This document shows positions 3,001-56,972 of a stretch of 64,000 nucleotides of DNA, piece after piece (the first letter of the stretch is position 1; each line of letters opens with the position of its first letter). Below the pieces are notes generated by a model. The model searched no databases. It saw only the letters and a list, made by a program, of their open reading frames with translations, and was not told where the DNA came from. The translations under genes were made by a program, and so were the position numbers. Source of the stretch: Prolixibacteraceae bacterium (GTDB lineage Bacteria; Bacteroidota; Bacteroidia; Bacteroidales; Prolixibacteraceae); NCBI GenBank assembly GCA_019163175.1, contig JAFLKN010000022.1, forward strand, positions 1 through 64,000, written 5' to 3'.

Positions 3001-3749
3001 TGACTGAAGAAAAACTTATCAGGAGCGAAAAGGAACTCAAAAAAGCACAGCAAATTACACACATAGGCAGCTGGTATCTCAATCTTGCAACCAATGAGGT
3101 GAAATGGACCGAAGAACTTTATAAAATGTATGGTTTTGATCCTTCACTTCCTCCTCCTCCTTATACCGAACATCAGAAACTGTTTACCCCTGAAAGTTGG
3201 GAGACCTTGTCGGCAGCACTGGTAAAAACAATAGAAACCGGCATTCCCTATGAGCTTGAGCTGAAAACGTTACGTATAGATGGCAGCAATGGATGGATGT
3301 GGGTACGGGGAGAAACCGAACACAATAAAGACGGAAATACCATTGCGCTTTGGGGGGCTGCTCAGGATATTACAGAGCGGAAACACGTGGAAAGCGCACT
3401 CGAAATGGGCGATATGTCTTGGTGGGAGTGGGATTATGAGCAAAACCAGGTCAAAACCGGGAAGGGAAAATACGAGATGCTTGGATATACTATTGATGAA
3501 ATTGGAGAGGGTTTTGAAGCATGGACAAAACTAATCCATCCGGATGACTACGAGATTGCCATGAATGCGATGAGGGATCATTTGAAAGGAGAAAGGGAAC
3601 ACTATTTTGTAGAATACCGAATCAGGCATAAAAACGGCAACTACCTTTGGTATAGAGATAAAGGTGGAATTATAATCCGTACCAAAAATGGCAAACCAAA
3701 AGTACTTGCTGGTATAGTTGTAAATATTTCCAATGAGAAAATAAAGTGA
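78..3749 (+). CDS. CheB-CheR fusion protein with coiled coil and four PAS domains
   Basis: A 1223-residue cytoplasmic signalling protein. Residues about 25-205 are a CheB methylesterase domain with the catalytic Ser in GASAGG (Ser32), His59 in QHL and Asp151 in GSDG. Residues about 225-480 are a CheR SAM-dependent methyltransferase, with the AACSTGEEAYSL SAM motif near 328-339 and FATDLD after it. Residues about 655-735 form a Glu/Ser/Asn-rich coiled coil (repeats of SNEELQS), typical of CheB/CheR/PAS hybrids. Four PAS/PAC units follow to the C-terminus (about 740-860, 861-985, 995-1110, 1113-1223). There is no histidine kinase domain; kinases sit in the next two genes. No chemotaxis genes or MCPs are nearby, so a role in chemotaxis adaptation is not supported; the substrate is unknown. 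The start is the first ATG after the upstream stop. The domain call is secure, the function is not. Confidence 0.9.
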   Translation: MKINKSGTKKDDIDYDLGKTILDFPIVGIGASAGGLESLQDFFKNMIPQPDAAFVVIQHLSPDYKSYMNELLSRFTSIKIEVVTDGMALKPNHIYLIPPKMNMTIFHGILYLNELGVNRTLNLPIDIFFRSLAKDQEKNAVGIILSGAGSDGTLGIKAIKEFGGMTMAQDEKSAKFDSMPHSSISTGMVDIIKPPKQLAEELINYLKHPFVKDNRNIETILASEQSQLSKVIAILHDTKNVDFSCYKENTIIRRLEKRISINRFEKIDEYIKFLISNSKEINILFNELLIGVTRFFRDEPAFNALKSMVISKMIETAAAKREIRIWVAACSTGEEAYSLAILLKECMAEGNINREVKIFATDLDTNSLEFAAAGYYPDNIVSDVSPERLSKFFIRKESGYQINENIRGMIVFAKQNIINDPPFSKLDLISCRNFLIYVNPDIQQKIFSLFNISLNENGHLFLGSSESLGNMGEGFKVIDNKSKIFQKLPNYTPPIQSALRQSSAFKSYPEILHANSLLKTPKGKNRFLEILFDQVMGDYLPPSVVIDENYDIIHTINNVNDYLSIPTGQITINLLKMLSKENSVFVSSLIRRAAKSKDEITIENINSKNIGKQLTLSCKKITDKLNDTIYYLVSFIEKDIVSNAKKPAKTEKINVQMHYNERIDELEKELQIKSENLQATVEELETSNEELQSSNEELIASNEELQSTNEELQSVNEELYTVNADHIRKIEELTELTSDVENLLKNTQIGTLYLDQHLIIRKVNDVASKLTNIISSDVGRPLNHLSLSNFDDNLIKEIEGVSDNLQLFEKEILDNTGRFYLMSIIPYRTVDNAVEGIIVTFVNITKLKKAEELKLASEARYRSYIEVTGQIGWVTNAAGEIVEDVPSLRKFTGQTYDEAKGNGWAKTLHPDDLDRTLQVWNNAVLKKIPYEIEYRMLRHDGDYCWLLARGFPVFRADKSILEWVGTCIDITERKLTEEKLIRSEKELKKAQQITHIGSWYLNLATNEVKWTEELYKMYGFDPSLPPPPYTEHQKLFTPESWETLSAALVKTIETGIPYELELKTLRIDGSNGWMWVRGETEHNKDGNTIALWGAAQDITERKHVESALEMGDMSWWEWDYEQNQVKTGKGKYEMLGYTIDEIGEGFEAWTKLIHPDDYEIAMNAMRDHLKGEREHYFVEYRIRHKNGNYLWYRDKGGIIIRTKNGKPKVLAGIVVNISNEKIK

Positions 3750-3777
3750 TCGGTTAACACAATGAAAAAAAAGAGTT

Positions 3778-5484
3778 ATGGAAGATAATTCAAAACTACG
3801 TAGAGAACAAGCAAAAGATGAACTCAGGAAAGGAAAGAAGATTGACACTTCCTTATATGAAAAAGATTTGAAAGGATTGGTTGAAGAATTGTCAATTTAT
3901 CAGATTGAACTTGAACATCAAAATCAGGAGCTTTATAAATCGCACGAGGAAATTCAGCAAAGTAAAGACCGGTATCTCGATTTGTTTGACAATGCACCAA
4001 TCAGCTACTTAATTGTTGATTCGAATGGGATTATAAAAGACATAAACCAAACCGCTTGCCTTTTATTTGAAAGCAGCAAAAACAAATTAGTAAAAAAGAA
4101 AATCACCAATATTATACATCGTGATTTTCAAGATGTTTACTACATCTACTTCCGATCATTAATCAAACAAAAGTACAATCAAACATGCGACATTAAACTT
4201 CAAAAAGCGAACAATACTTTTTTTTATGCACGAATTCAAGGCATCCGCCAAACCAGTTTAGCTACGAAAGAGCCAGAATTCCGATTGGCCATAATTGATA
4301 TAACCATTCAAAAAGAAATGGAGCTTAATCTCTTGATTGCCAAAGAAAAAGCACAAGAACACGACAAGTTGAAGTCGGCATTTTTAGCCAACATGAGCCA
4401 CGAGATCCGTACACCAATGAACGGTATTCTGGGTTTTGCAGAACTACTCAAGGAAGGTCATTTAACTGACAAACAGCAACTGGATTACATCAACATCATC
4501 GAGAAAAGCGGCACTCGAATGCTCAATATCATCAACGACATTGTGGATATTTCGAAGATTGAAGCCGGACTGATGAAATTAGATATCAAAGAGTCAAATA
4601 TCAACGAGCAAATCGAATATATTTATACCTTTTTCAAGCCTGAGGTGGAAGCCAAGGAGATGAAGCTTTCGTTTAAAAACACATTACCTGCTAAGGAAGC
4701 AATTATTAAAACCGACAGCGAAAAAGTTTATGCCATCCTTACCAACCTGGTAAAAAATGCCATTAAATACACCGAAAAGGGTTCAATTGAATTTGGGTAT
4801 GAAATTGTAGAGACGCAAGGCCGTGCGTCTCTACAATTTTACGTAAAAGACACCGGCATTGGAATTCCTGCCGACAGGCAGTCAGCCATATTTGAGCGTT
4901 TTGTTCAGGCTGATGTTTCTGATAGAATGGCTCGGCAGGGAGCAGGTTTAGGCTTGGCAATTACTAAATCGTACGTCGAAATGTTAGGAGGCAAAATTTG
5001 GGTAGAAAGCCAGGAAGGCGTTGGTTCAACTTTTCATTTCACTTTGCCTTACAATGCAGAACCGGTGACAGAAACTATTAATCAACAACTTGCGACTTCA
5101 GGAAAAATAGATACTATTAGAAACCTGAAGATTCTGATTGCCGAAGATGATGAAATATCGGAAAAACTGGTTGAAATAGCCGTAAAAATATTAAGCAGGG
5201 AAATCGTAAAAGTAAGAACAGGAGTTGAAGCCGTTTTAGCTTGCATTGAAAATCCTGATATAGACCTGATATTGATGGATATTCGGATGCCAGAAATGGG
5301 TGGATTTGATGCGACCCGACAAATCAGGGAATTCAACAAAGAGGTGGTCATTATTGCGCAGACAGCTTATGGGCAGTCTGACGAACGGGAAAAGGCAATT
5401 GCAGCGGGATGCAACGATTATATTGCAAAGCCCATTAAGAAAGAGGAATTATTGGCGTTGATGCAGAAGTATTTTAAAAAATAA
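3778..5484 (+). CDS. PAS-histidine kinase-receiver hybrid
   Basis: 568 residues, no membrane segment, so a soluble sensor. An N-terminal helical stretch leads to a PAS domain (about 62-180). HisKA has the phospho-acceptor His208 in MSHEIRTPMNG. HATPase_c shows the N-box (Asn327 in LTNLVKNAIKYT), G1 (KDTGIGIP, about 357-364) and G2 (GAGLGLAI, about 388-395). A receiver domain fills about 448-568, with Asp457/Asp458 and phospho-acceptor Asp501 in LMDIRMPEMGG, and the KP motif near the end. A perfect 16-bp inverted repeat (4802-4839) lies inside the ATPase domain and codes for the variable loop before the G1 box. The gene begins 28 bp after the CheB-CheR gene and ends 4 bp before the next kinase, so the three likely form one operon. 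No output DNA-binding protein is in the cluster. Confidence 0.92.
   Translation: MEDNSKLRREQAKDELRKGKKIDTSLYEKDLKGLVEELSIYQIELEHQNQELYKSHEEIQQSKDRYLDLFDNAPISYLIVDSNGIIKDINQTACLLFESSKNKLVKKKITNIIHRDFQDVYYIYFRSLIKQKYNQTCDIKLQKANNTFFYARIQGIRQTSLATKEPEFRLAIIDITIQKEMELNLLIAKEKAQEHDKLKSAFLANMSHEIRTPMNGILGFAELLKEGHLTDKQQLDYINIIEKSGTRMLNIINDIVDISKIEAGLMKLDIKESNINEQIEYIYTFFKPEVEAKEMKLSFKNTLPAKEAIIKTDSEKVYAILTNLVKNAIKYTEKGSIEFGYEIVETQGRASLQFYVKDTGIGIPADRQSAIFERFVQADVSDRMARQGAGLGLAITKSYVEMLGGKIWVESQEGVGSTFHFTLPYNAEPVTETINQQLATSGKIDTIRNLKILIAEDDEISEKLVEIAVKILSREIVKVRTGVEAVLACIENPDIDLILMDIRMPEMGGFDATRQIREFNKEVVIIAQTAYGQSDEREKAIAAGCNDYIAKPIKKEELLALMQKYFKK
4802..4839. repeat. Perfect inverted repeat inside a coding sequence (GTAGAGACGC family)
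   Basis: Arms 4802-4817 and 4824-4839 are exact 16-bp reverse complements around a 6-base loop (AGGCCG). The core, GTAGAGACGCA, is a motif I recognise from dispersed palindromic repeats in Bacteroidota and some Cyanobacteria. It lies in frame and codes for residues about 342-354 of the hybrid kinase (VETQGRASLQ), between the N-box and the G1 box, a place where these kinases vary in length. The coding frame is intact. Confidence 0.8.
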
Positions 5485-5488
5485 GAAG

Positions 5489-8200
5489 ATGAACGATCAG
5501 GAAAAATCCAAAGAAGAACTAATTAGTGAGTTAGTGGGATTGCGGGAAGAGAATAAAAAGTTCAAGATATTATTTGATAAGGATATCCAGGAAATTAAGC
5601 AGGTGGAATCAATCCTGAAGGAATCAGAAGGAAGATACCGTAATCTGGTTGATAATGCATTGATTGGCGTTTCAAGATCAATGGTCAATGGTGAGGTCAT
5701 CTATGTGAACGAGGCCATTGTAAAAATGCTGGAATTCGATTCCCGTGAGGAACTCATCTCAGCGGGAGCTTTTATGCGGTATAAATATCCGTCGCAGCGC
5801 GAGGAGTTTATTCGAATGCTAAAAAAGGATGGAATGGTAAATGGATTTGAGGCCAGCATCCTTACAAAAAAAGGCAATGAAAGGGTTTTTCTATTCAGTC
5901 TGCTTTTAAACGGGGATGTCATTGATGGAACCTTGATCGACATAACAGAACGAAAAGAGACCGAAGATGCCTTACGAAAAAGCGAAAAAAAATGGCGCAA
6001 ACTGGTACAAACTCTGCCCGATTATGTCGCCTTGTATGACTGTGATGGAAAATACCTTTTTCTCAATCGTTTTGCTCAAGGTTTTTCGATGAAGGATATT
6101 GAAGGAAAAACATATTCCGATTTTCTGGCCGATGATTTCAGGTTAGTTTATGAAGAAGCCTTCAACATGGCTAAACAAACCAATTCGACCCAGTATGTTG
6201 AACACACTGCCTTGGGCGATAACAGGACCATTCGGAATTACGAAAGTTATTTCGTTCCGATATTTGAAAATGATGAGTTTTCGAATATGATGGTGATTGC
6301 CAGAGATGTTACCGAACGGAAGAAAACGGAAGAAGCACTGAAATGGAATGAAGCGATTTTTAACCAGTTTTTGGAGTACAGTCCTATTTATGTGTTCTTT
6401 AAAGATGAGAATATCCGTTCGTTGAAGTTAAGCCGCAATTACGAAAAATTGCTGGGCAAACCGATTGACGAATTGCTGGGTAAAACAATGAACGAATTAT
6501 TTCCATCCGATGTAGCTGAAAAAATGATTGAAGACGATCTTCAGATTCTTCATGAAGGAATTAAAGTAGAGGTTATTGAGGAATTTAATAACCGTCACTT
6601 TTCAACCATCAAATTTCCAATTCAATTGGAAGGAAAACCCAAGTTTTTGGCTGGTTTTACAATAGACATCACCGATCGCTTAAAGGCAGAGCAAGAAATC
6701 AGGGAGAGCGAAGAACGATTTCGTGTTTTGCTTCAAAGTGTTTCTTCGGTTTCAGTTCAGGGCTATTCGCCCGATGGCACCACTCAATACTGGAATAAAG
6801 CGTCGGAGCTACTCTACGGATACACCGAACAGGAAGCGATTGGCCGCAATTTACTTGACCTGATTATCCCATTGGAGATGAAGGAAGGTGCAAAACAAGC
6901 TATCCAACAAATGGATGAAACGGGGATACCGATTCCTCCTTCAGAATTGTCTCTCATGCGAAAAGACGGTTCTCGGGTATCTGTCATTTCAAGCCATGCA
7001 ATTGTTCAATCTTTGGGAAAATCTCAGGAATTGTTTTGCATTGATATTGACCTCACTGATTACAAAAAAGCAGAAGAAGCAATTCTCAAAAGCAAACAAC
7101 AGTTTGACAATTTGGTGGCGCAAATTCCTGTTGGAGTGTATATCCTGAGAACCAAACCTGATTATTCGTATGCTTTGGAATATGTAAGTCCGGTAATGGC
7201 TAAAATACTTGGCTTAAGTGTTGAAAGTTTACTCGCCTATAACAATACCATTTTCAATGCTATTCATCCCGAAGATTTGGAAGAAGTTGCCAAATTAAAT
7301 CTGGAAGGAATAAAACGAAAGCAGCCATTCGACTGGAAGGGAAGGGCTATTGTTAAAGGAGTTGTCAAGTGGTTGCATATGTCATCGCTACCCCAGCAAC
7401 AGGAAAATGGCGATATTTTATGGCATGGATTAATCGTTGACATTACTGAGCAAATACGTGATGAAGAAGAAATAAAAAAACAAAACCAAAAGCTTCAGGA
7501 ACTCAATGCCACTAAAGATAAATTCTTCTCTATTATTGCCCATGACCTGCGCAGCCCATTCAACGGCTTTTTGGGACTTACGCAGATTATGGCCGAAGAA
7601 TTACCAAGCCTGACCATGGCACAGATACAGGAAATTGCTATGGATATGAGCAAATCGGCCACCAACCTATACCGCTTGCTCGAAAACCTGCTGCACTGGT
7701 CCAGTATGCAACAAGGCGTAATCCCTTTCAATCCTGAAACAGTTAGGTTGTTGCCCTTTGCAGATGAAAGTATTACGATGATATTGGAACCAGCCAAAGT
7801 CAAAGGAATTGAAATAAACTGCACTATTCCAGATGATTTGGTTGTTTTTGCAGATACCAACCTCCTCCAAACCATCATTCGAAACCTCGTTTCAAACGCT
7901 GTAAAATTTACGCACAAAGGAGGAAAAGTGAATCTATCTGCTAAAATCGCCAATGATTCGAACATCGAAATATCTGTTCATGATACAGGTATTGGAATGA
8001 GTCAGGTATTGTTGGATAATTTATTTAAACTTGATGTAAATACAAGCAGACTAGGGACCAACGGAGAACCCAGTAGCGGATTGGGTCTGTTGTTGTGCAA
8101 AGAATTCATTGAAAAACATGGTGCCCAAATTTGGGTCGAAAGTGAAGTCGGCAAAGGCAGTACATTTTATTTTACCTTACCTAGAATTAAAAATCATTAA
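5489..8200 (+). CDS. Multi-PAS sensor histidine kinase
   Basis: 903 residues, soluble, beginning with a short coiled coil. About five PAS/PAC units follow (roughly 35-155, 165-285, 290-400, 405-530, 540-655), several ending in the PAC-type DITERKE/DVTERKKTE linker. HisKA carries His685 in IIAHDLRSPFNGFLG, the type common in Bacteroidota stand-alone kinases. HATPase_c has an N-box (RNLVSNAVKFTHKGG), G1 (HDTGIGMS) and G2 (SSGLGLLLC). There is no receiver domain, in contrast to the gene 4 bp upstream, so this protein may pass phosphate to the receiver of its neighbour (inference). The start ATG directly follows the upstream stop, which suggests translational coupling. Ligand unknown. Confidence 0.92.
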   Translation: MNDQEKSKEELISELVGLREENKKFKILFDKDIQEIKQVESILKESEGRYRNLVDNALIGVSRSMVNGEVIYVNEAIVKMLEFDSREELISAGAFMRYKYPSQREEFIRMLKKDGMVNGFEASILTKKGNERVFLFSLLLNGDVIDGTLIDITERKETEDALRKSEKKWRKLVQTLPDYVALYDCDGKYLFLNRFAQGFSMKDIEGKTYSDFLADDFRLVYEEAFNMAKQTNSTQYVEHTALGDNRTIRNYESYFVPIFENDEFSNMMVIARDVTERKKTEEALKWNEAIFNQFLEYSPIYVFFKDENIRSLKLSRNYEKLLGKPIDELLGKTMNELFPSDVAEKMIEDDLQILHEGIKVEVIEEFNNRHFSTIKFPIQLEGKPKFLAGFTIDITDRLKAEQEIRESEERFRVLLQSVSSVSVQGYSPDGTTQYWNKASELLYGYTEQEAIGRNLLDLIIPLEMKEGAKQAIQQMDETGIPIPPSELSLMRKDGSRVSVISSHAIVQSLGKSQELFCIDIDLTDYKKAEEAILKSKQQFDNLVAQIPVGVYILRTKPDYSYALEYVSPVMAKILGLSVESLLAYNNTIFNAIHPEDLEEVAKLNLEGIKRKQPFDWKGRAIVKGVVKWLHMSSLPQQQENGDILWHGLIVDITEQIRDEEEIKKQNQKLQELNATKDKFFSIIAHDLRSPFNGFLGLTQIMAEELPSLTMAQIQEIAMDMSKSATNLYRLLENLLHWSSMQQGVIPFNPETVRLLPFADESITMILEPAKVKGIEINCTIPDDLVVFADTNLLQTIIRNLVSNAVKFTHKGGKVNLSAKIANDSNIEISVHDTGIGMSQVLLDNLFKLDVNTSRLGTNGEPSSGLGLLLCKEFIEKHGAQIWVESEVGKGSTFYFTLPRIKNH

Positions 8201-8252: not shown

Positions 8253-8843
8253 TTACTCCAAAAAAACATAAAAGAATAACATTCCGGAAATTCGGTCGTT
8301 TCCGAATTCCTTTTTTAGGAAATTCATGGCTTCAGTGATTTGATTTTCAACGGTCTTTGGCGATATTTCCATTTCAGAAGCAATGTCGCGAATTGATTTT
8401 CCTTCTTTTTTGCGTTTCATGAAAATTTCTTTGCGGCGTAAAGGCATTTCTTCGATCAGTTCTTCCAGTTTGGCAACCAACTTCTCAAATTCAGCTTTTG
8501 TTTCGATCGATGGGTTTTCGTCTGTTAGCCATTCAATGATTTCGGTTCGGTAGTGCTCGCTGCGCGCCTTTTGGTTGAAGTGTTTACGAATGGAGTTAAA
8601 GGCGATAGTAAATAAATAAGACTGAAAAGAGGTTTCGTTCTTGAGCTTTTTTCGGTTTTCCCATAATTTCAGGAATACATTCTGAACAATCTCTTCGGCT
8701 TCGGTCTCCGATTTCAGGTAGGAAAAAGAGAAGCGGTACAATTTCTGGCTGTAGCGTTCAAATAATTGCTCGAAAGCAAATTGCGATCCGTTTCGCAATA
8801 GGGTGATCAACTGCTGCTCGGTATGAAATTGTTCGTTTTTCAA
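8253..8843 (-). CDS. ECF sigma factor, Bacteroidota type, TTG start
   Basis: 196 residues. The sigma-70 region 2 is visible in FEQLFERYSQKLYRFSFSYL and AEEIVQNVFLKLWE (about 24-67), and region 4 in LRRKEIFMKRKKEGKSIRDI followed by EISPKTVENQ (about 137-175). It directs RNA polymerase to a small regulon. Genes of this family normally sit beside a FecR anti-sigma factor and a SusC/SusD pair; neither is here. The start must be TTG at 8843, because the next Met falls in region 4 and would remove region 2. A TATTTTTG -7 element lies 28 bp upstream. The neighbouring gene upstream is the end of the glycan operon, which might be its target (inference). Confidence 0.88.
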   Translation of the reverse strand: MKNEQFHTEQQLITLLRNGSQFAFEQLFERYSQKLYRFSFSYLKSETEAEEIVQNVFLKLWENRKKLKNETSFQSYLFTIAFNSIRKHFNQKARSEHYRTEIIEWLTDENPSIETKAEFEKLVAKLEELIEEMPLRRKEIFMKRKKEGKSIRDIASEMEISPKTVENQITEAMNFLKKEFGNDRISGMLFFYVFLE

Positions 8844-8985: not shown

Positions 8986-9942
8986 TTAAATCTCAATATG
9001 ATGTTGGTCTAAACGTGATTTCAACCAAATCAGGTCCTTTTTCATCATTCCATAAATCTTCATCCGGTCCATTGTTATTTCCTTTTTACCCAATTCAGCG
9101 CCACCCAGGTCGTATTCGTAGTGAATGCTGATTGGAGCTTCAACATTCAGTTTGGCATATTCTTTCAAAAATTCATCAAAATTAACCATGCCTTCGCCCA
9201 GAAACACATTTTTCGCTTTCCATTCTCCGGAAGCAGTTTTCTCGAACACCGAATCTTTGATGTCGATCGTTGTGATCCAGGGAGCGACCCGTTTCATGCC
9301 TAGTCTCCATGAAAATGCACCTTCAGCAACGGCATGGCGAATGTCATACTGAACTCCCATATATTTTGGATTGACATTTTTAATTACTTCATAAATATCC
9401 CAAACCGGTGAGCCTAATGAATTTCCTGAATGATTCTGATAATCACCATGAATCCCCAGTTTTTCATTCAAAGCTGCAAGTTTCTCGAAGGTCTTTTTAT
9501 GTTCGTCGAGGTTCTGCTGAATGGTTTTCGACTCGTCGTATTTTAACCATCCGGTACGGTAATACTTTATGCCCAAATCGACCAAAGCCTGAAGGGTCAA
9601 TTGGGTAAGCGGATCAGCAGCATCGGTAATGGAAGTAACCACCATTGGTATGGTAATGTTATTTTTCTGAAGTGTTTTTACCGCTAATGGCAATGCCGTT
9701 TTAACTTCGGAGGGTTCAACTTGTCCACCCGGTCGGAGTGTAATGTCGGCGCCATCGAACCCCAGAAAAGAAAGAACTTCACCAATTTCGTCGAAACTCA
9801 GAAACTGCAGGCATTTAGTAAATGCACAGATGGGGCGTTTTGCAACTCGGGGTGCCAATATCGAATTGGCCAGTCCTGTTCCAGCCAGACTTAGTCCGGC
9901 TGCCGAAAGACCTGTTGTTTGGATAAAATTACGTCGGTTCAT
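8986..9942 (-). CDS. Exported sugar phosphate isomerase/epimerase-like TIM barrel
   Basis: 318 residues. The N-terminus MNRRNFIQTTGLSAAG is a twin-arginine (Tat) type signal, so a folded, probably metal-containing enzyme is exported to the periplasm. The rest is an AP-endonuclease/xylose-isomerase-like TIM barrel (PF01261 type): acidic and His residues fit metal binding in GADITLRPGG, GIHGDYQNHSG, VQYDIRHAV and TTIDIKDSVF. Enzymes of this fold isomerise or epimerise sugars. It is the last gene of a five-gene operon with two fucosidases, 14 bp after the enolase-superfamily gene, so a released monosaccharide or its acid is the likely substrate (inference). The exact reaction cannot be read from sequence. 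Confidence 0.85.
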   Translation of the reverse strand: MNRRNFIQTTGLSAAGLSLAGTGLANSILAPRVAKRPICAFTKCLQFLSFDEIGEVLSFLGFDGADITLRPGGQVEPSEVKTALPLAVKTLQKNNITIPMVVTSITDAADPLTQLTLQALVDLGIKYYRTGWLKYDESKTIQQNLDEHKKTFEKLAALNEKLGIHGDYQNHSGNSLGSPVWDIYEVIKNVNPKYMGVQYDIRHAVAEGAFSWRLGMKRVAPWITTIDIKDSVFEKTASGEWKAKNVFLGEGMVNFDEFLKEYAKLNVEAPISIHYEYDLGGAELGKKEITMDRMKIYGMMKKDLIWLKSRLDQHHIEI

Positions 9943-9956
9943 AATAGTCAGTTAGT

Positions 9957-11222
9957 TTATGCTTTCACTATTTTGTGTTTCGAAATATAATCGGGATCAA
10001 TTTCAATTCCCAGTCCCGGACCTGATGGAACTGTTACCACACCTCCGTCACTATCGAGTTTTGAGGTTTTACATTCGTAGGGCAACTCTTTGTTAAAGCC
10101 TTTAAACTCGTGAAACGGTCCGGCATTGGACACCGCTGAAACAAAGTGCATCATGTAAAGATATCCTATTCCATTGCCTGAAATGTGCGGTGTGCAAGCT
10201 TTTCCGAAAGCTTCGGCCATACGGGCTACTTTCATAGAGCGGATCATTCCGCCAAAATAGAAAATATCGGGCTGTATAATTTGTAGTGCGTCATTGGCAA
10301 TCAGCCATCGGAAACTGTGCAGGCTTGGCTCCTGTTCTCCGCCTGCAATCGGAATAGTCAGGGCATCGGCCACCTGGCGGGTTTCCTCGTACCAATCGAA
10401 GGGTGTAGGTTCTTCGTAAAAGTCGAAACGGTATTCTTCCAGTAATTTACCTATTCTGATGGCCTCTTTAGCATCGTAGGATCCATTCGAATCGGCATAA
10501 ACCACCATTTTGTCGCCAAAGGTTTTCCGGATTAGCGGAATCAGTTTTTCAGTGCGTCCCGGCGGATCATCGGCATTGTTGCTCATCCTTCCGCCCACCT
10601 TAAATTTTAATGCCTTCGCCTGAGTTTCTTCAACGTTCTTTTTTATTCTTACAATGGATTCTTCGGCAGTTTTACCGCGATAATTGTTTGCCTGATAAAC
10701 GGCAATTTCGCGATTTTTTACCGACCCGATTAAATCTCCAATAGGCTTGCTGCTCATTCTCCCAAATAAATCGAGAATCGCAAATTCTATGGTTGCAAGC
10801 GGAATCCAAAGCGCCAGACCTTGTAGTTTGTAATTGCTCTGATAAACGTAAACCTCGTCGAGTAATTTTTCAAGCTTGCGCGCATCTTTGCCAATAAAAT
10901 AGGGCTGAAGCCGATGGACAAAAACCGGATACAATGATTTCATCTGATCGTTATTCGAAACAGAAATTCCTTCGGCTCCATCTTTTGAGCGAACCCGACA
11001 CAGAAAACTATCTTCATACCTCAATAATTCAAGCGAAGCAATGATTACCGGATCAGAAAACAGTTCTTGTTTAAAAACTGGTTTTGATGCAATTTCGTCC
11101 AGTTTCTTATACCGCTCTTCAATTTCAGGACTTGTTTCAGAGGGTATATGGTTGATCATTAAAGGAACTGCAGCTGTTCCCAACACACTCTTCTTTATAA
11201 ATTGCCTACGGTTAGTTGCCAT
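9957..11222 (-). CDS. Exported mandelate racemase/muconate lactonizing enzyme family protein (enolase superfamily)
   Basis: 421 residues with a Tat-like N-terminus (MATNRRQFIKKSVLGTAAVP). The enolase-superfamily active site is complete: KFKVGG (the KxK base), Asp in YADSNGSYD, Glu in FYEEPTPFDW and Glu in AGGEQEP as metal ligands, then QPDIFYFGG and the His in TPHISGNG of mandelate racemase-type members. Such enzymes abstract the proton alpha to a carboxylate, giving dehydration of sugar acids, racemisation or lactone formation. Beside two fucosidases an L-fuconate-like acid is a reasonable guess, but known fuconate dehydratases are cytoplasmic, so the export signal is unusual. Gaps of 12 and 14 bp to its neighbours indicate one operon. 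Confidence 0.87.
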   Translation of the reverse strand: MATNRRQFIKKSVLGTAAVPLMINHIPSETSPEIEERYKKLDEIASKPVFKQELFSDPVIIASLELLRYEDSFLCRVRSKDGAEGISVSNNDQMKSLYPVFVHRLQPYFIGKDARKLEKLLDEVYVYQSNYKLQGLALWIPLATIEFAILDLFGRMSSKPIGDLIGSVKNREIAVYQANNYRGKTAEESIVRIKKNVEETQAKALKFKVGGRMSNNADDPPGRTEKLIPLIRKTFGDKMVVYADSNGSYDAKEAIRIGKLLEEYRFDFYEEPTPFDWYEETRQVADALTIPIAGGEQEPSLHSFRWLIANDALQIIQPDIFYFGGMIRSMKVARMAEAFGKACTPHISGNGIGYLYMMHFVSAVSNAGPFHEFKGFNKELPYECKTSKLDSDGGVVTVPSGPGLGIEIDPDYISKHKIVKA

Positions 11223-11234
11223 TTTATCTTAAAA

Positions 11235-13526
11235 TTAAAGTACTTCCGAAGCTATTTCTTTTAATTCGCCGTTTACCCGGACTTTAACTATTTCCGATTT
11301 TGCCGAACGAATCCGGTATGAACTGACTTTTCCATCTTTCCATTCGCAATCAACTGAGAATCCGCCACGGGCACGCAGTCCTGAAAACGATCCGCTGGCG
11401 GCCCAACTTTTCGGAACAGCTGGCAGCAATTGGATTTCTCCGGCATGGCTTTGCATAAGCATTTCGGTCATCGCTGCAGGAATTCCGAAGTTTCCATCGA
11501 GCTGAAAGGGTGGGTGATTGCAAAACAGGTTGGGTAAAGTGTTGTACGTAAGTAGTCCTCGCACCATGATTCCGGCGCGCTCGCCTTCGCCTAAACGAGC
11601 CCACAGCGCACAACGCCAGGGCCAGGTCCATGAACGACGGCTGTCGCCAACGGTTGATTCAACAGTAAATGGAGTATTTTCATTTTTGCCATAATTTCCG
11701 GAGCGGCTACGCAGCGATAGAATTGCGGCTTTGGCTAAATCGGGTGTGTTGGTCATGCTGATTTGACGCCCGGGATACACTGCAAACAGATGCGAAGTAT
11801 GGCGGTGCTGGTCATTCGGATCATCGCGATCTTCCTGCCATTCCTGCAGCTGACCCCATTTGCCGATTTTGTTGGGAGCCAAACGTACAAGCATATCAGC
11901 TATTTTTTTCTGATAATCAGCATCTGTATTCAGGGCTTTGGCCGCTTCCAGATAATTTTGGAACAGATCCCAAATCAATTGCTGATCGTGCATAATTCCG
12001 TCTTCGCGAGGACCATGCTCAGGCGACCAACCGTTCGGAACCATTAGCGATCCATCAGGCAAAGTTTTCAAGCGGTCTTCCCAGTATTCGCAGATTTCTT
12101 TGATGATTGGGTAAGCAGTTAGGTTCAAATACGAATTGTCTTTGGTAAATGCCCAATGCTCGTAAACATGTTGGGCATACCAGGCACTGGCCGGAATATT
12201 CCATTCCCAACCGTTTCCACCAAAAATATTTTGAGAGGTTCTTGCAGTCCAGCCGCGTGTATTTTCTCCAAAGGCTTTTCGGGTGGCAATTCGGCAGGGC
12301 TCCTGTTGGGCAACAATATAATCGATGAGCGGTAGCTGACATTCAGAAAGGTTAGTCGATTCAGCAGCCCAGTAATTCATCTGGATGTTGATGTTGTTGT
12401 GGTAATCGCTGGCCCATGCGGGAGTATTGCTATCGTTCCACAAACCTTGCAGGTTGGCCGGAAGTCCACCCGGACGCGAAGAACTAACCAATAAATAGCG
12501 CCCGTACTGGAACATCATTTCTTCCAGATCCGGGTCGTCGGTTCCTTTTTGTTGCCGTTTGATTTGGTCGAAGGCGGTGGCATCAACCTGATTGCCTTTG
12601 GGTGCGGCCACATCGCCACCTACTCCTGAATAACGTTTCAAGCGTTCATCGGTTGGCAATTTCAGTAAATTGGGCGCTGTGGTTCCAATGTTGATGGATG
12701 CGCGGGAGAGTATCGAACAAATATCTTTACAATGAGAAGCCCGTAGGTTTTTATAACCTTTGATTTGCGCTGCTGCCAGTTCTTTTTCGATTTCCGGCAT
12801 CGGATCGGCTCCACGCCAGCCGGCTTTGTAATCGGGTTTGTAATTGGTTCGTGCATCAAGAAGCAAAGTCAATGAGCTGCAGTTTTCAAAGAGTACACTG
12901 TTTCCTTCCATCCTGATTTTGCCGCCTTTATGAATGAGCTGGACGGCTGCAGCATATTTTAATTTGTTGGGCATTTCGCCTGAAAGAAACATTCCTTTTT
13001 CTGTTGCAGTGCTGACAGCACCCTGCGCCGATGTTAGAGCTATTTTTCCGGAAATCGATTTTTTCTTTCCGGAAGTATAGCTGAAAACCATAACCTGATC
13101 GGGGTAACTGGCAAAGGCTTCACGTTTGTATTTTACCCCGTTTATTTTGAAAGTAGTTGTATGAATACCATTGGAAATGTCTAAAGTCCGGCTGTAATCG
13201 CTGGGTTCACCGGAGAAATTAAAATCGAGAGTAAGCTCCCCGAAATTACGGTACGAACCGAATCCATGATCGCCGGTTTCGTATTTCCCATCCCAGTTGT
13301 TATCGCCCGACCATAAACTTTGTTCGTTAAACTGGATTCGCTCCTGTTTAACCCCACCAAAAAACATGGCTCCCATACGCCCATTTCCTATGGGAAGAGC
13401 CTCGGCCGACCATTTTTGAGCAGGTTGAGTGTACCAAAGTTTTAGGCTTGAAGCGTCTTGGGCATTTGAAAATCCCACTACCAGTAAATTAATCAGGAAA
13501 AATGAAATATATTTCTTCGCATTCAT
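11235..13526 (-). CDS. GH95 alpha-L-fucosidase
   Basis: 763 residues with a Sec signal peptide ([22 protein letters not shown]). Family GH95 hallmarks: [20 protein letters not shown] near the N-terminus; [12 protein letters not shown], which holds the catalytic Asn residues of the family; [15 protein letters not shown] with the general-acid Glu; [11 protein letters not shown]; and the C-terminal [17 protein letters not shown]95 enzymes are inverting and mostly remove alpha-1,2-linked L-fucose, though some act on L-galactose. The enzyme should work in the periplasm or on the surface. It is 14 bp downstream of the GH29 gene, so two fucosidases of different mechanism and linkage preference are made together. 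Confidence 0.93.
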
Positions 13527-13540
13527 ATCAATGATGTTTT

Positions 13541-14875
13541 TTAATTCAGACCACCTTGTCCCCGGTATAATTTCAGGGGTTTATCGAGTTTTACTTTCAG
13601 AACGGTTACGTAGTTATCCAAAACTGTTTCAGGAACAGTAATGTAAACCAGACCCGGAACAGGGCTCCACGAAATTTTGCCTACAACTTTATGAGTCAGT
13701 TTGCTTCCGTTTCCTACAACTGAAATATCTTCAATTTTATTTGCCAGCCCTTTAACCATGACTTGTCCGTTTACTTTTCCGTGCAGGAAAAGGTAAACCG
13801 AAGTTGAATCTTTGGATAGGGTAGTGGGTCCATAAAAATGACCCTGTGGCAAGCCGGCGACTGTATTGAAAATGGCTTCGCCGTGTTTTTTATTCCATGC
13901 TCCCAATTCTTTCAGCACATGAATCTGCTCTTCCGGAATGGTTCCATCTTCTTTGGGTCCCATATCGAGCAGCAAATTGCCACCATTCGAAACCGCATCC
14001 ACAAAAATGGTAATCACTTCGTAGGGTGTTTTCCAGTTGTTGTCGTGGTGGAAACCCCAGTTGTCATTGGTAGTCATGCACAACTCCCACCAATTGTATT
14101 TCGGTTTCGAAACCGGGAAGTTCTGTTCGGGTGTTTCGTAATCGCCGTAACCCTGTAATCGTCCGTTGATGATAGCTTTCGGGTTGCCTGATAAAATGAT
14201 TTGCCGCACTTTTTGCGATTCCCATTCTTCGGCGCTATGCTCCCAATCGCCATCGAACCACCACAAATCGGGCTTAAACATACTGTTGATTTCCTTAATC
14301 TGTCCCTGAAAGAAACTCCGGAAACGGTTCCAGCGGTCGTAGTCGTCGGCAATTTTGTATTTCGAACTATCCTTCAGGAAGCCCGGATAATCCTTGTCTG
14401 TCCAGTCGATCAGCGAAAAATAGGCACCGCATTTGATGTCGCGTTTGCGCAATTCCTCGAAGAGTGGTTTAATCATGTCGCGCTTGGCTGGCGTGGCTTT
14501 TACAGTGCTCAGGTTATTCAGTTTGGTGTCGTACATGGCCACCCCGTCGTGATGTTTGGTGGTGATTACCGAATAGCGGGCGCCGCTTTCCTTGATCAGG
14601 TCGGCCCAGAAAGCAGGATCGTAATTTTTCAGGGTAAAGCCTTTTAACTGCTTCATATAATCGGCATGACTAATCTTTTTGTTGTGAAAACTCCACGACT
14701 CGTCAATGCCATCAACGGCATAAATTCCGGTGTGAATAAAAATACCCAGTTTGGCATCGGCAAACCACTGCATTTTATCTTTAATTTCTTTCGGATCGAT
14801 TTTAGATTGGGCTGAAGTACCTGTTGCGAACGAAATGAACAGGCAGCAAATGATAAGTTTAGATAAGCGATTCAT
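13541..14875 (-). CDS. GH29 alpha-L-fucosidase
   Basis: 444 residues from the ATG at 14875, which gives a clean Sec signal peptide ([19 protein letters not shown] then SAQS). An upstream in-frame ATG at 14959 would add 28 residues ahead of the signal and overlap the preceding gene, so I reject it. GH29 features: [20 protein letters not shown] near the start, [12 protein letters not shown], and WWFDGDWEH, where Asp208 is the expected retaining nucleophile. A small beta-sandwich domain follows from about residue 345. Retaining GH29 enzymes cleave alpha-1,2/3/4/6-linked fucose, and linkage cannot be predicted here. Gaps are 22 bp to the upstream and 14 bp to the downstream gene. Confidence 0.93.
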
Positions 14876-14897
14876 TGTTGTATTTGTTTTTGATTTT

Positions 14898-17117
14898 TTA
14901 TTCTGAAAAAATGTACCACGATTGACTTTTGGCTGGAACCTCAACATCGATCCAGGCATGGTTGTCGGTGGAGATTGGCAAAGTGCTCACCTTTCCGTTT
15001 CGGTCAGTCAGTTTGGCCCTGTTCTTTAGTCCGGTATAGTATAAATTGACGTTGATTTTACGTTTAATCGGCTCGTTTAGCGGATTGTAAATCATTAGCA
15101 ATCCCTTTTCAGTGCCTTGCGGATCGACATGAAGAATAGCATCGTAATCGCGTCCGTCAGCCCTGCGAATGTGAATAATATCACCATCCAGAATCCGGCG
15201 GTGCGTTTTGTAAAAGGCCACCCATTTGGCTACAATGGCTTTGGTTTCAGGAGCATCAAACAGCTGTGGTCCGCGGTAGCAAGCCTGAACGCCCGCACCA
15301 AAAAGGTTGGCTAATCGCTGTTCGTAATGGGGTAAATGTTCTTTCAGTGGTTCTATAGTTGCCGCCTGACCACCGCCCTGGTATTCTACCAACGGCACAA
15401 ACATCCAGCCCATCGATGGCGATTTGTGCCAGGTGCCGTCGTAAATATTTTGGCGTTCAATAATTTCCTGCTGCTCTCGCGGTAACGACCAGTTGGTTTC
15501 ACGGTAGCCCATGCCGGTTTTGTTACTTCCGCTCAAAAAATAATAATCCGGAACATTAAGGTAGATTCCTTTGCTGCGGCACCACTTGTAAAAATCGGTG
15601 ATGCGCTGGTATTGATTCCACTGCGAATCTTCCAGCCCACGGTGTCCCGGATGCACCGTAGATGCACAAATATCGCCGGGGTAGGAGCCGTCATGTTCAA
15701 AATTGTCGAGCCCTGTTTTTTCGTAGAAGTTATACAACTGCTTGAAATAGTCTTGCCCCCATTTACTTTCGATACAAGGTGAATTTCCAAATCGTGGTGT
15801 TTTACCAGCAGGCATCACCACATCATTTTCCTTGTCGATACTCCGACTGGCAAGCAGCGAATATCCGCCGAGTGTAATTCCTTTGGAATGTGCATAATCC
15901 GCCAGCATTTTCATGCGTTCCAGATTTTCAGGACTTGCATCCTCGGTGTTGAATCCACTTCCGAAAGTCATAATCACTTTCTCGAAACCTACTTCAGCAC
16001 ATTGGTCTATTGCTTTTTTTACGGCTTCGGTTTCGGCGCTGCGTACATGCATCAAAATCGGATTTTCAGTGGCCCATGGTGCCATTGCCCGCATCATCCG
16101 GCGATGTTCCAATCCTTTGCGTTCGCGGTCCCAACTGTCGTGCAGCAATTCCCATGCGCGGTAAGTCGAAAAAGTTTTGCCGGGTGCCAGTTCCTGATCT
16201 GGTCCGTATTTGGGGTAGACTTCCAGCAGACAGGGCATGTTCCGTTCGTAATTCACCTGCGTTTTGTATAGTGGATCAAGATTCCAGGCTACACTCGATT
16301 CGAGGATGCTTTCGTCAGTCATACCTCCAAAATTGTAGTCGGTTTCGACGGTGATATTCGGATAAGTCCAGCTTTTGCGGTTATCCACATTGCTTTCCGG
16401 TTCGGTTGCTGCCAGAATTTCGCTTTTGAACCGATTGATCCGGATGCTTTGTGATGACTTATTTTCGACGGTAACCCACTTGCTGAAAACGGGCATCTGA
16501 TCGTACAATTCGTAATGAACGCTTACCTCAATGTCTTTCAGGTAGGCAAATTTTGTGTGTTCAGGAATGAGGTTAATGGCTTGTTCATCGAGCTGATAAG
16601 TGAAGATCAGTTCTTTTCCCGGTGCAGGCCAGGGCATATCTTTGGGCATCCACGTTGTTCGCTTTTTCCACGGAAAACGTTCTTTTGTCTCTTCCACCCG
16701 GTAATCCTTCAGCTTAAATGAAGCAGGATCGGCCGTCATCTGATTGATCCATTCGGGAAGCAGGTAATTTTGGATGGGCTGTCCAACTAGTCCTCCGACA
16801 GCAAAAGTTAGCCCATCGATCGTTAGTTCAGCTTCAGGACGAACCGACCGCAGAAATGATTCATTGTTGCTTAGCAAATCGAGTGACACCGTTGCACAAT
16901 TGGGTTTTGTGGTAAATGTCCGGCTGACAATTCCGTTTGAAAGAACGAGTTTTCCATCCTCAGTCCGGAACAATTGAGTTTTGGTTGCGGTTTGCTCAAT
17001 AAGCCAATCGGCGTGGGTGCTTAGTTTTTCTTTGTTGTAAACCGGAAGGTTTGGTTTTGGCTGGCTTGAAGCTGCCAGACCGACAAGTAGCGAAAATGCC
17101 AGAAGCATCAATTTCAT
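14898..17117 (-). CDS. Alpha-galactosidase-like glycoside hydrolase (GH36-type TIM barrel)
   Basis: 739 residues with a Sec signal (MKLMLLAFSLLVGLAASSQ). Residues about 30-330 look like an N-terminal beta-sandwich as in GH31/GH36 clan enzymes (LVLSNGIVSRTF, FLRSVRPEAELTIDG). The central barrel has VIMTFGSGFNTED, HSKGITLGGYSLLASRS, LDNFEHDGSYPGD (an Asp in the place of a GH36 nucleophile) and YLNVPDYYFLSGSNKTGMGY. The C-terminal beta domain ends in KSQSWYIF. I recognise the overall fold as alpha-galactosidase-like but cannot assign a family firmly, and the usual KxD nucleophile motif of GH36 is not obvious. It is the first gene of the operon, 22 bp before the GH29 gene, with a promoter at 17144-17174. 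It may remove a galactose or related cap next to fucose (inference). Confidence 0.75.
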   Translation of the reverse strand: MKLMLLAFSLLVGLAASSQPKPNLPVYNKEKLSTHADWLIEQTATKTQLFRTEDGKLVLSNGIVSRTFTTKPNCATVSLDLLSNNESFLRSVRPEAELTIDGLTFAVGGLVGQPIQNYLLPEWINQMTADPASFKLKDYRVEETKERFPWKKRTTWMPKDMPWPAPGKELIFTYQLDEQAINLIPEHTKFAYLKDIEVSVHYELYDQMPVFSKWVTVENKSSQSIRINRFKSEILAATEPESNVDNRKSWTYPNITVETDYNFGGMTDESILESSVAWNLDPLYKTQVNYERNMPCLLEVYPKYGPDQELAPGKTFSTYRAWELLHDSWDRERKGLEHRRMMRAMAPWATENPILMHVRSAETEAVKKAIDQCAEVGFEKVIMTFGSGFNTEDASPENLERMKMLADYAHSKGITLGGYSLLASRSIDKENDVVMPAGKTPRFGNSPCIESKWGQDYFKQLYNFYEKTGLDNFEHDGSYPGDICASTVHPGHRGLEDSQWNQYQRITDFYKWCRSKGIYLNVPDYYFLSGSNKTGMGYRETNWSLPREQQEIIERQNIYDGTWHKSPSMGWMFVPLVEYQGGGQAATIEPLKEHLPHYEQRLANLFGAGVQACYRGPQLFDAPETKAIVAKWVAFYKTHRRILDGDIIHIRRADGRDYDAILHVDPQGTEKGLLMIYNPLNEPIKRKINVNLYYTGLKNRAKLTDRNGKVSTLPISTDNHAWIDVEVPAKSQSWYIFSE

Positions 17118-17143: not shown

Positions 17144-17174
17144 CAAAAGTAAAAATCCTTTTCCCATTTTCAAT
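17144..17174 (-). promoter_or_regulatory. Promoter of the five-gene glycan operon
   Basis: On the minus strand an ATTG (-33, 17171-17174) and an exact TACTTTTG (-7, 17144-17151) are 19 bp apart, which fits the Bacteroidota TTG-N19-TAnnTTTG consensus. The expected transcript starts near 17137, about 20 bases before the ATG at 17117. The consensus match suggests use of the housekeeping sigma factor rather than an ECF sigma. Confidence 0.6.
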
Positions 17175-17380: not shown

Positions 17381-17869
17381 TCACGGTTTGTCCTTCATAT
17401 TGGCAATTGTTTTTGCCTTATCAGCACTTCCGGCTGATGATCCGAAGTAGTAACTGTAAACCTGTGTCAGAATAGCGCTTAGCACACCAAGGATGTACAG
17501 AACAATTTCCTTGCTGTCGGCAGATATACTGTTCGGCTTAAAAACCAGAATGTAAAAAAACAGCATGGTAAGTAATGTTGTGCCGAAAGCCAGAATTGGC
17601 GATACACTCTTTGCCAGTTTGCTCGCATTCTCGCTGGTTTGTATCTGGACTTCCCTGTTGCGGGCGCTGTTCATATCGTCCATAATCATGCGCTGTTCTT
17701 CGTTGCTAAGCTTCTTCATTTCCAGTTGAAACTGAATTTCCGATTTCCGGATTTCATTTTCGAGCTGCATTTTTTCTTCTTTGGTTGTAACCACGTTATC
17801 GAGCACTTTGCCTACCGAATCGACAAGCGTAATGGCTCCTCCTGAAAATAGATCTTGTATAAATCCCAT
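17381..17869 (-). CDS. Holin of the 3TM type (phage-like)
   Basis: 162 residues from the ATG at 17869 (MGFIQDLFSGG). A longer reading frame to 17998 runs through an intergenic palindrome and overlaps the lysozyme gene, so I reject it. The N-terminus has an amphipathic stretch, a charged helix follows (EEKMQLENEIRKSEIQFQLE, then EEQRMIMDDMNSARNREVQ), then two clear membrane segments (about 97-118 and 123-146) and a charged tail. This matches the 3TM phage holin family, where the helix-rich middle precedes the membrane part. A holin lets endolysin cross the inner membrane; the endolysin gene is directly upstream. No other phage gene is in the window. Confidence 0.75.
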   Translation of the reverse strand: MGFIQDLFSGGAITLVDSVGKVLDNVVTTKEEKMQLENEIRKSEIQFQLEMKKLSNEEQRMIMDDMNSARNREVQIQTSENASKLAKSVSPILAFGTTLLTMLFFYILVFKPNSISADSKEIVLYILGVLSAILTQVYSYYFGSSAGSADKAKTIANMKDKP

Positions 17870-17890
17870 AATTGATAGATTTGCCTTCCC

Positions 17891-17949
17891 CTTCAACACG
17901 CTACGCTGCTCAGCCAGCGGCGCTCCCTGAGCAGCGTAGCGTGTCGAAG
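17891..17949. repeat. Long palindromic intergenic repeat
   Basis: Arms 17891-17913 and 17927-17949 are 23 bp long with a single mismatch; the inner 18 bp (ACACGCTACGCTGCTCAG) are perfect. The loop is 13 bases. It sits between the lysozyme and holin genes, and one arm lies within reach of the lysozyme stop codon at 17968. The CTGAGCAGCGTAGCGTGTCG sequence is a dispersed repeat I recognise from many Bacteroidota. In RNA it would form a very stable hairpin that could reduce holin relative to endolysin expression (inference). Confidence 0.85.
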
Positions 17950-17967
17950 CCAGAAGGAAGTTAATTT

Positions 17968-18501
17968 TTAGTTTTCGCCAAGGGCGCGTAATACCCATCC
18001 GTAGAAATATTTCCGGCTGGTAGGGCGTTTCTTAACGATACTGACGTAACGTGCTATTTTGGCAACAGTAAATGCGGCCAGAAAGTGTTCGGGATCAAAC
18101 GCATTGATTGTGGCAATAGATTGAGGGCCAATTACGCCATCAGTTTTAGCTTTAACAACCAATTGGGCAAGGGTCGCACTTGTAGCAACACCGGCATTCA
18201 CACCAAAATCATAGATTGATTCGGCTATTTCCTGATTCTGGATGTCGTCGCCTTTAATTTTATCCCAAAAAGTAACACGATAGAAATCGGAAATGGATTC
18301 CTGAAGTTGAAGATCTTTTTCGAGATTGGCCGGAAAACCAGCTTCGCGTTTTCGCATATCTACATTTTGCCAGCCTTCCCATTTGCTGTGAATTTTGCGG
18401 GCTACTCCTTTGTACGTTTCGCCTCCCGGATCGTCCGGGTCGTTGCCATAGCCACCTTCGTGGGCTAAAACCAACTGAAAAGCTTTTGAAAAATCTGCCA
18501 T
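17968..18501 (-). CDS. Endolysin, GH108 N-acetylmuramidase with peptidoglycan-binding domain
   Basis: 177 residues. The first 90 residues are a GH108 muramidase (DUF847 type) with the catalytic Glu in LAHEGGYGNDPDDPGGET and the conserved YKGVARK. The C-terminal part is the associated peptidoglycan-binding domain (PG_binding_3), with SIYDFGVNAGV, DGVIGPQS and KYFYGWVLRA. The enzyme cleaves the glycan strands of peptidoglycan. It has no signal peptide, which fits export through the holin encoded 98 bp downstream on the same strand. This pair is the only phage-like material found and could be a prophage remnant, a domesticated lysis module or part of a particle-release system. Confidence 0.88.
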   Translation of the reverse strand: MADFSKAFQLVLAHEGGYGNDPDDPGGETYKGVARKIHSKWEGWQNVDMRKREAGFPANLEKDLQLQESISDFYRVTFWDKIKGDDIQNQEIAESIYDFGVNAGVATSATLAQLVVKAKTDGVIGPQSIATINAFDPEHFLAAFTVAKIARYVSIVKKRPTSRKYFYGWVLRALGEN

Positions 18502-56929: not shown

Positions 56930-56972
56930 CAACTTCTACAATCTTTCTATTTGCTCCTCGTGTAATTATGGG

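What the first reader, a model, noticed from the sequence alone, without database searches (positions are those of the whole stretch)
8986..17117. SusCD-free fucosidase operon with exported enolase-superfamily and isomerase enzymes
Five genes with gaps of 12-22 bp and one promoter: galactosidase-like, GH29, GH95, an enolase-superfamily protein and a sugar isomerase-like TIM barrel. The last two carry twin-arginine-like signals, so sugar acid or sugar conversion may take place outside the cytoplasm. Fuconate dehydratases are normally cytoplasmic. No SusC/SusD or fucose transporter is included. A periplasmic route for fucose or a related sugar would be new.
Basis: partly seen in the sequence, partly recalled or inferred. 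Interest (0 to 1): 0.7.

Follow-up and report, generated by a model that had tools for sequence, protein, structure and literature searches.

The report
Exported sugar-processing enzymes beside fucosidases
A Bacteroidota-type bacterium carries one operon of three glycan-cutting enzymes plus two enzymes that look exported, one of them from a widespread exported family without a tested function that probably turns sugar acids into 2-keto-3-deoxy acids outside the cytoplasm; the operon looks like a detached piece of an ordinary polysaccharide utilisation locus rather than a proven new fucose pathway.

Summary
The five-gene operon is real (gaps 22, 14, 12, 14 bp): GH36-like, GH29, GH95, a mandelate-racemase-type enolase-superfamily protein (enol) and a xylose-isomerase-like barrel (xyli). 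Both last proteins carry twin-arginine motifs, as do 86 of 90 complete relatives of enol (61 of 701 other ORFs in those loci) and 21 of 21 of xyli, so export is well supported. 'SusCD-free' is only locally true: the next gene, an ECF sigma factor, is 80% identical to one that in a same-genus relative stands in xyli-ECF-FecR-SusC-SusD, and that FecR-SusC-SusD block (69-84% identical) is on contig C50 of the same genome. A fucose route is not supported: 7 of 94 enol loci have a GH29/GH95-like gene in their flanks, no fuconate dehydratase is among the matches shown, and the genome has a fucose-isomerase-family gene. Neighbours of enol relatives include SMP-30 lactonases, pectate lyases, sulfatases, and a few KdgT, GntP and DASS acid permeases, which fits an exported sugar-acid dehydratase or cycloisomerase. 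Relatives of xyli often lie with exported Gfo/Idh/MocA oxidoreductases, which fits 3-keto-sugar chemistry better than aldose isomerisation. Activities and substrates are untested.

The parts
14898..17117 (-). gh36l: secreted GH36-like glycosidase, 739 aa, first gene; Sec-like signal
   Evidence: profile hit to alpha-galactosidase 2xn0, 3.2e-5; pLDDT 87.9; Foldseek best hits are alpha-galactosidases, several described as GH36; best E 2.9e-24, TM 0.54, 11% identity
13541..14875 (-). GH29 alpha-L-fucosidase, Sec-like signal; start ATG at 14875
   Evidence: (closest solved 6gn6, 7.7e-65)
11235..13526 (-). GH95, alpha-1,2-fucosidase-like, Sec-like signal
   Evidence: (closest solved 7znz FucOB, 7.2e-212)
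9957..11222 (-). enol: Tat-motif enolase-superfamily protein, mandelate racemase type (K206, K208, D244, E270, E296, D319, H346, E372)
8986..9942 (-). xyli: Tat-motif xylose-isomerase-like TIM barrel (AP_endonuc_2)
8253..8843 (-). ECF sigma factor, 142 bp downstream; orthologue of the sigma factor of FecR-SusC-SusD loci in relatives
17144..17173 (-). Bacteroidota-type promoter-like match TTG-N19-TACTTTTG
   Evidence: consensus recalled; no enrichment over shuffles

Best explanation
The operon is the detached glycosidase and post-hydrolysis arm of a polysaccharide utilisation locus. Shown: gene order, families, Tat motifs, and an orthologous FecR-SusC-SusD-sulfatase-GH92-GH28-alpha-galactosidase-Gfo/Idh/MocA-GH88 block on contig C50 of the same genome. 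Inferred: three Sec-exported glycosidases trim fucosylated side chains in the periplasm; two folded, metal-dependent, Tat-exported enzymes then process released sugars or their oxidised forms there. The enolase-superfamily enzyme (KxK base, three acidic metal ligands, His-Asp dyad) most likely dehydrates or cycloisomerises a sugar acid to a 2-keto-3-deoxy acid, which an acid permease imports (KdgT, GntP or DASS in some relatives; the one used here is unknown). The TIM barrel most likely works on a C3-oxidised sugar (hydratase, eliminase or epimerase) made by an exported Gfo/Idh/MocA dehydrogenase such as the one in the C50 block.
For: Export: RRx[hydrophobic] in 86 of 90 complete enol relatives versus 61 of 701 control ORFs, and in 21 of 21 xyli relatives; 15 of 87 Tat-motif enol relatives also have a lipobox-like Cys, 1 of 93 at a control position; TatC present. 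Enzyme class: seven catalytic positions invariant and K208 nearly so in 32 sequences, aligned with 5olc, a 3,6-anhydro-D-galactonate cycloisomerase (PMC5698469, passages). Context: 82 of the 83 immediate same-strand neighbours in 63 loci: SMP-30 15, sulfatase 9, pectate lyase 6, GntP 2, DASS 2, KdgT 1, one MFS; of 82 control proteins none is SMP-30 in the 25 of 159 families shown. L191 reads enol-KdgT-glycerate kinase. xyli: of 21 homologue loci 9 have an enolase-superfamily-like gene and 9 a Gfo/Idh/MocA-like gene on the same strand within two genes; one reads GH95-xyli-DUF1080. Locus in two parts: ECF 80%, FecR 69%, SusC 84%, SusD 83%, Gfo 87%, GH88 87% identical to G018, where xyli-ECF-FecR-SusC-SusD stand in line with them.
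Against: No activity, localisation or expression data; Tat signals are judged by motif only. The genome has no KdgT match and one SMP-30 protein over the cut-off; GntP and DASS were not searched in it. The KdgT-linked relative is divergent (50%) and has R for K208. Acid permeases or an MFS transporter adjoin only 6 of 63 loci with an immediate neighbour, and SMP-30 neighbours are mainly one lineage. 30 of 93 enol loci have no co-operonic neighbour. Four relatives adjoin amidases and four adjoin cation-ATPase genes, which do not point to sugar acids. xyli fold hits are generic: epimerases, hydratase AtHYD and 3-keto-glucoside epimerase YcjR all appear. 12 of 21 xyli loci lack an enolase-superfamily-like neighbour; eight of the nine neighbours are of one family, mr2, over the MR_MLE_C cut-off in 5 of 9 members scanned, and one member searched gave no PDB hit; two mr2 members lack a Tat motif. 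The Gfo/Idh/MocA of the xyli cassettes has no close orthologue here (best 36-37%), and the C50 block lacks the DUF1080 gene of G018, though 15 DUF1080 matches lie in the genome. That C50 joins C4 is not shown: no end overlap.
Confidence: 0.5

Rival explanations
1. Periplasmic fucose oxidation: L-fucose is oxidised outside the cytoplasm and enol is an exported L-fuconate dehydratase.
For: Operon has GH29 and GH95; enol has mandelate-racemase-type catalytic residues.
Against: No fuconate dehydratase among the family or structure matches shown; 7 of 94 enol loci have a GH29/GH95-like gene in their flanks; the genome has a fucose-isomerase-family gene.
Confidence: 0.12
2. enol is an exported racemase, epimerase or lyase for a non-sugar acid, such as one released from pectin, sulfated glycans or amides, and its place in the operon is loose.
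For: Four relatives adjoin amidases and nine adjoin sulfatases; closest solved structures bear only family names or 'putative racemase'.
Against: KdgT, GntP and SMP-30 neighbours of some relatives; best NCBIfam matches are sugar-acid dehydratases, though all far below cut-off.
Confidence: 0.2
3. xyli is a plain exported aldose or ketose isomerase or 3-epimerase acting on free sugars.
For: Foldseek hits include tagatose, allulose and ribulose 3-epimerases.
Against: Recurrent Gfo/Idh/MocA neighbours and one DUF1080 neighbour; the usual barrel glutamate seems replaced by Q169, invariant in 21 sequences (ligand assignment recalled).
Confidence: 0.25

Closest known systems
DauB, 3,6-anhydro-D-galactonate cycloisomerase of Zobellia (5olc), and AtGCI (4ggb)
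   Same: Enolase superfamily; catalytic Lys, His and three acidic ligands align with 5olc (residues of AtGCI from PMC5698469, passages)
   Different: Enol has roughly 55 residues before the conserved core, with a Tat motif; only distant (2e-33); DauB acts after a dehydrogenase in the carrageenan regulon (passages)
3-keto-glycoside pathway proteins: AtHYD (8ro4), DUF1080 hydrolases, Gfo/Idh/MocA oxidoreductases
   Same: Xylose-isomerase-like barrel; same companion families in relatives; AtHYD and a Gfo oxidoreductase share an operon (PMC10628242, passages); periplasmic location proposed for a DUF1080 hydrolase (PMC9007349, passages)
   Different: Only a fold-level match to AtHYD (TM 0.59-0.60, 16-17% identity); no oxidoreductase or DUF1080 gene in the window operon
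Bacteroidota polysaccharide utilisation locus with ECF/FecR control
   Same: ECF orthologue and glycosidases; FecR-SusC-SusD block in the same genome
   Different: Two parts on different contigs; the operon itself has no SusC/SusD
L-fuconate dehydratase (FucD)
   Same: Same superfamily and subgroup (recalled)
   Different: Not among the matches shown; FucD is taken to be cytoplasmic (recalled)
SAR202 mandelate-racemase-family paralogues for non-phosphorylative fucose and rhamnose use
   Same: Same superfamily, sugar-acid role proposed (PMC10444878, passages)
   Different: The word periplasm does not occur in that paper's held text

Membership tests
Enolase superfamily, mandelate racemase subgroup | C-terminal barrel and N-terminal capping domain | tested here: met
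   enol: PF13378 8.3e-53 and PF02746 1.3e-4, both over cut-off
Enolase superfamily, mandelate racemase subgroup | KxK, three acidic metal ligands, His-Asp dyad (motif recalled) | tested here: met
   K206, D244, E270, E296, D319, H346, E372 invariant in 32 sequences; K208 is R in L191; aligned with 5olc
L-fuconate dehydratase | Orthology by sequence to characterised FucD | tested here: inconclusive
   None among 13 NCBIfam families (whether the library holds one was not checked) nor among the 60 structures shown of 161 and of 143; a direct comparison was not made
L-fuconate dehydratase | Dehydration of L-fuconate | not testable with these tools
   needs enzyme assay
Tat-exported protein | RRxF-type motif and hydrophobic stretch at the N-terminus, TatC in genome | tested here: met
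   no signal-peptide predictor was available
3-keto-sugar pathway barrel (AtHYD-like) | Sequence-level similarity to a characterised member | tested here: not met
   profile hits in PDB are 3p6l, 3wqo, 3tva, none named as such; AtHYD by fold only
3-keto-sugar pathway barrel (AtHYD-like) | Encoded with Gfo/Idh/MocA and DUF1080 genes | tested here: inconclusive
   9 of 21 loci Gfo-like within two genes, one DUF1080; not in the window operon itself
Polysaccharide utilisation locus | SusC/SusD pair with regulator and CAZymes | tested here: inconclusive
   absent from the operon; orthologous block on contig C50; physical linkage not shown
GH36 | Pfam or sequence-level membership | tested here: not met
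   gh36l is below the cut-off of PF16875 and has no catalytic-domain hit; profile hit 3.2e-5 to 2xn0; fold alike

The most novel reading that the evidence does not exclude
Bacteroidota run a complete non-phosphorylating sugar-acid route in the periplasm: sugars freed by exo-glycosidases are oxidised by Tat-exported Gfo/Idh/MocA dehydrogenases, lactones are opened by exported SMP-30 proteins, an exported enolase-superfamily dehydratase makes 2-keto-3-deoxy acids, and KdgT, GntP or DASS permeases import the acids instead of sugars.
Probability: 0.25. Interest if true: 0.75.

Novelty: new variant of a known kind. Interest (0 to 1): 0.5.

Why it matters
Acid-sugar dehydratases are treated as cytoplasmic (recalled). 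A family of Tat-exported ones, seen here mostly in Bacteroidota contigs and once each in contigs labelled Acidobacteriota and Phycisphaerales, and sometimes next to acid permeases, would mean that part of sugar catabolism happens before uptake, and would change how utilisation loci are read. The case also shows that an apparently SusCD-free operon can be half of an ordinary locus.

Tried and rejected
A five-gene operon conserved in relatives: not found. In the hit tables (100 genomes, own included, one search per gene) only the own genome has a gh36l hit on a contig that also bears an enol or xyli hit; G089 contig C54 has enol and xyli together. SusC/SusD at 78-5484: rejected. Joining of contig C50 to C4: tested by end overlap, none found; both ends lie in + strand PAS/kinase genes whose products match each other at 23-47% identity, suggestive only. 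Using structure to name xyli's reaction: led nowhere. Using the promoter count as evidence: dropped after recount. Literature: ten searches listed, in the rows and abstract starts shown (at most 15 rows each), no paper on an exported enolase-superfamily sugar-acid dehydratase; the library holds only open-licence PMC papers. I saw passages, no whole text, of seven papers: PMC5507952, PMC10628242, PMC10444878, PMC5698469, PMC13273386, PMC9007349, PMC8857213. The Nature 2024 paper on a 3-keto pathway was seen only as a reference in PMC13273386.
Full report
Observation. The window is the first 64 kb of contig C4 of a 5.9 Mb, 74-contig genome. Titles of the nearest named enol relatives are mostly Bacteroidales, Bacteroidia, Prolixibacteraceae, Mariniphaga, Maribellus and Cyclobacteriaceae, so a Bacteroidota, perhaps Prolixibacteraceae, is inferred. 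Five genes on the - strand run from 17117 to 8986 with gaps of 22, 14, 12 and 14 bp. Pfam gives GH29, GH95, MR_MLE and AP_endonuc_2 for genes 2 to 5. Gene 1 has only a sub-threshold GH36 N-domain hit; a model from 26 sequences (pLDDT 87.9) matches alpha-galactosidases at TM about 0.5-0.6 and 11-13% identity, so it is a distant GH36-like family. GH29 is closest to 6gn6 and GH95 to the alpha-1,2-fucosidase FucOB. The genome has 23 strong GH29 matches and two weak ones. One Bacteroidota-type promoter match lies 27 bp before the first start codon, but the pattern is not rarer in shuffled sequence than here.

Export. Genes 1 to 3 have hydrophobic Sec-like starts; enol and xyli start with MATNRRQFIKK and MNRRNFIQ. 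Among enol relatives with complete 5' ends, 86 of 90 have RRx[hydrophobic] in the first 60 residues, against 61 of 701 other ORFs of the same loci; xyli relatives have it in 21 of 21. Fifteen of 87 Tat-motif relatives add a lipobox-like Cys, against 1 of 93 at residues 100-132. TatC is present. No signal predictor was available.

What enol is. Its closest solved relatives (3u4f, 3tcs, 3t8q, 3t9p) bear only family names or 'putative racemase'; the next, 5olc, is 3,6-anhydro-D-galactonate cycloisomerase (PMC5698469, passages). NCBIfam's three best matches are gluconate/galactonate, arabinonate and galactonate dehydratases, at 119-129 bits against cut-offs of 311 to 750, so class is supported but not substrate. 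Catalytic positions are invariant in 32 sequences except K208, which is R in the KdgT-linked L191. Matches at E up to 1e-60 are in 20 of 100 genomes of the family, own included; 113 of 158 pattern-matched stretches of the genome collection encode a relative, 80 kept.

Where enol relatives sit. I used 94 loci (80 named, 14 unnamed); L088 gave no ORF. In 30 of 93 there was no same-strand neighbour within 150 bp; the rest gave 125 neighbours within two genes, 83 of them immediate, in 63 loci. All but one of the 83 (a fragment of enol itself) were scanned: SMP-30 15, sulfatase 9, pectate lyase 6, amidase 4, E1-E2 ATPase 4, Amidohydro_2 3, GntP 2, DASS 2, KdgT 1, in the 25 of 54 families shown; one MFS neighbour was seen. 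Eighty-two control proteins at least five genes away show no SMP-30, GntP, DASS or KdgT among the 25 of 159 families shown, which cannot exclude single hits. By their titles SMP-30 neighbours are mainly Cyclobacteriaceae-type. L191 reads GH67N-bearing gene-enol-KdgT-glycerate kinase-AP_endonuc_2. A GH29/GH95-like gene (blastp 1e-10 to the window's own) lies in the flanks of 4 of 80 named loci (L035, L055, L068, L092) and 3 of 14 unnamed ones (L185, L189, L192), three to six genes away. This fits a sugar-acid dehydratase or cycloisomerase of varied context better than a fucose enzyme.

What xyli is. Profile hits in PDB are three barrels without a tested role in their names; fold hits mix epimerases, dehydratases, AtHYD and YcjR. 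Context says more: of 21 homologue loci, 9 have an enolase-superfamily-like gene on the same strand within two genes (L192 the 40% relative of enol, eight a second family, mr2) and 9 a Gfo/Idh/MocA-like gene (L210 at only 23%). L198 has mr2 three genes away. mr2 rests on MR_MLE_C hits over the cut-off in 5 of 9 members; the other four, 66-86% identical to these, gave none, and one member gave no PDB hit. mr2 has a Tat motif in 7 of 9. L197 reads GH95 (82%)-xyli (65%)-DUF1080. A Gfo oxidoreductase, a barrel eliminase and the hydratase AtHYD share an Agrobacterium operon for 3-keto-glycosides (PMC10628242, passages), and DUF1080 proteins are linked to hydrolysis of 3-keto-disaccharides (PMC9007349, passages).

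A locus in two parts. The ECF sigma factor at 8253-8843 is 79.6% identical to that of same-genus genome G018, where xyli (77%)-ECF-FecR-SusC-SusD are in line, followed by sulfatase, GH92, GH28, an alpha-galactosidase-like gene (these four named from orthologues in G000), DUF1080, Gfo/Idh/MocA and GH88. In G002 ECF (60%)-FecR-SusC-SusD-xyli (50%) also occur together. In the window's genome SusD has an 84% match on contig C50, with SusC 84% and FecR 69% beside it, then a 688-aa gene not matched in G018, sulfatase, GH92, GH28 and two NPCBM/alpha-galactosidase genes, then Gfo/Idh/MocA and GH88 (87% each) and an unassigned gene; DUF1080 is missing there. No match to any of the five operon genes or to ECF is in the searched 19.5 kb of C50. 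In same-genus G047, genes matching the window's M3 peptidase, GH108 and holin are followed by xyli (80%), without the other four genes between, so genes 1 to 4 were gained here or lost there. The locus is modular, and 'no SusC/SusD' is a matter of position.

Rest of the genome. A fucose-isomerase-family gene is on C30, so the ordinary cytoplasmic entry is plausible. KdgT gives no match, SMP-30 one over the cut-off, DUF1080 fifteen, and the xyli-linked Gfo/Idh/MocA only paralogues of at most 37%.

Verdict. Exported enzymes: likely. Sugar-acid dehydratase or cycloisomerase: more likely than not. Periplasmic fucose pathway: not shown. The interest lies in the exported enol family and in the company kept by xyli-type barrels, not in the operon as framed. 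The recount changed the promoter argument, the fucosidase-neighbour count and the strength of mr2; I left the odds as they were, since the main claims do not rest on these.

Noticed in passing
L195:6514-7992, and members in L196, L198, L199, L200, L201, L202, L204, L205: mr2, a distant enolase-superfamily-like family (5 of 9 over the MR_MLE_C cut-off; KIK and an AIALKAIAK stretch by eye), Tat motif in 7 of 9, next to xyli and mostly a Tat-motif Gfo/Idh/MocA oxidoreductase.
   Followed up: partly
L235:6067-7218 (own genome, contig C26): Another MR_MLE protein with a Tat-type start (MNTRRNFIRTT) in the same genome.
   Followed up: no
14898-17117: gh36l looks like a GH36-fold family without a Pfam catalytic model; 6 of its 9 closest relatives fetched wide (L213-L221) have a GH29 or GH95-like gene in the same stretch.
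   Followed up: partly
L213:2366-4516: A methylmalonyl-CoA mutase gene lies just before a GH95-like gene and gh36l in G007; a similar gene by eye in G052.
   Followed up: no
78-8200: Array of CheB/CheR-PAS and histidine kinase genes at the contig start; similar + strand genes end contig C50, so the two contigs may be neighbours.
   Followed up: partly
17381-18501: Holin-like (just below cut-off) and GH108 lysozyme genes upstream of the operon, conserved with M3 peptidase genes in G047.
   Followed up: partly
57062-62605 and 54590-56932: Bacterial alpha-2-macroglobulin next to a penicillin-binding protein with a BiPBP_C domain.
   Followed up: no
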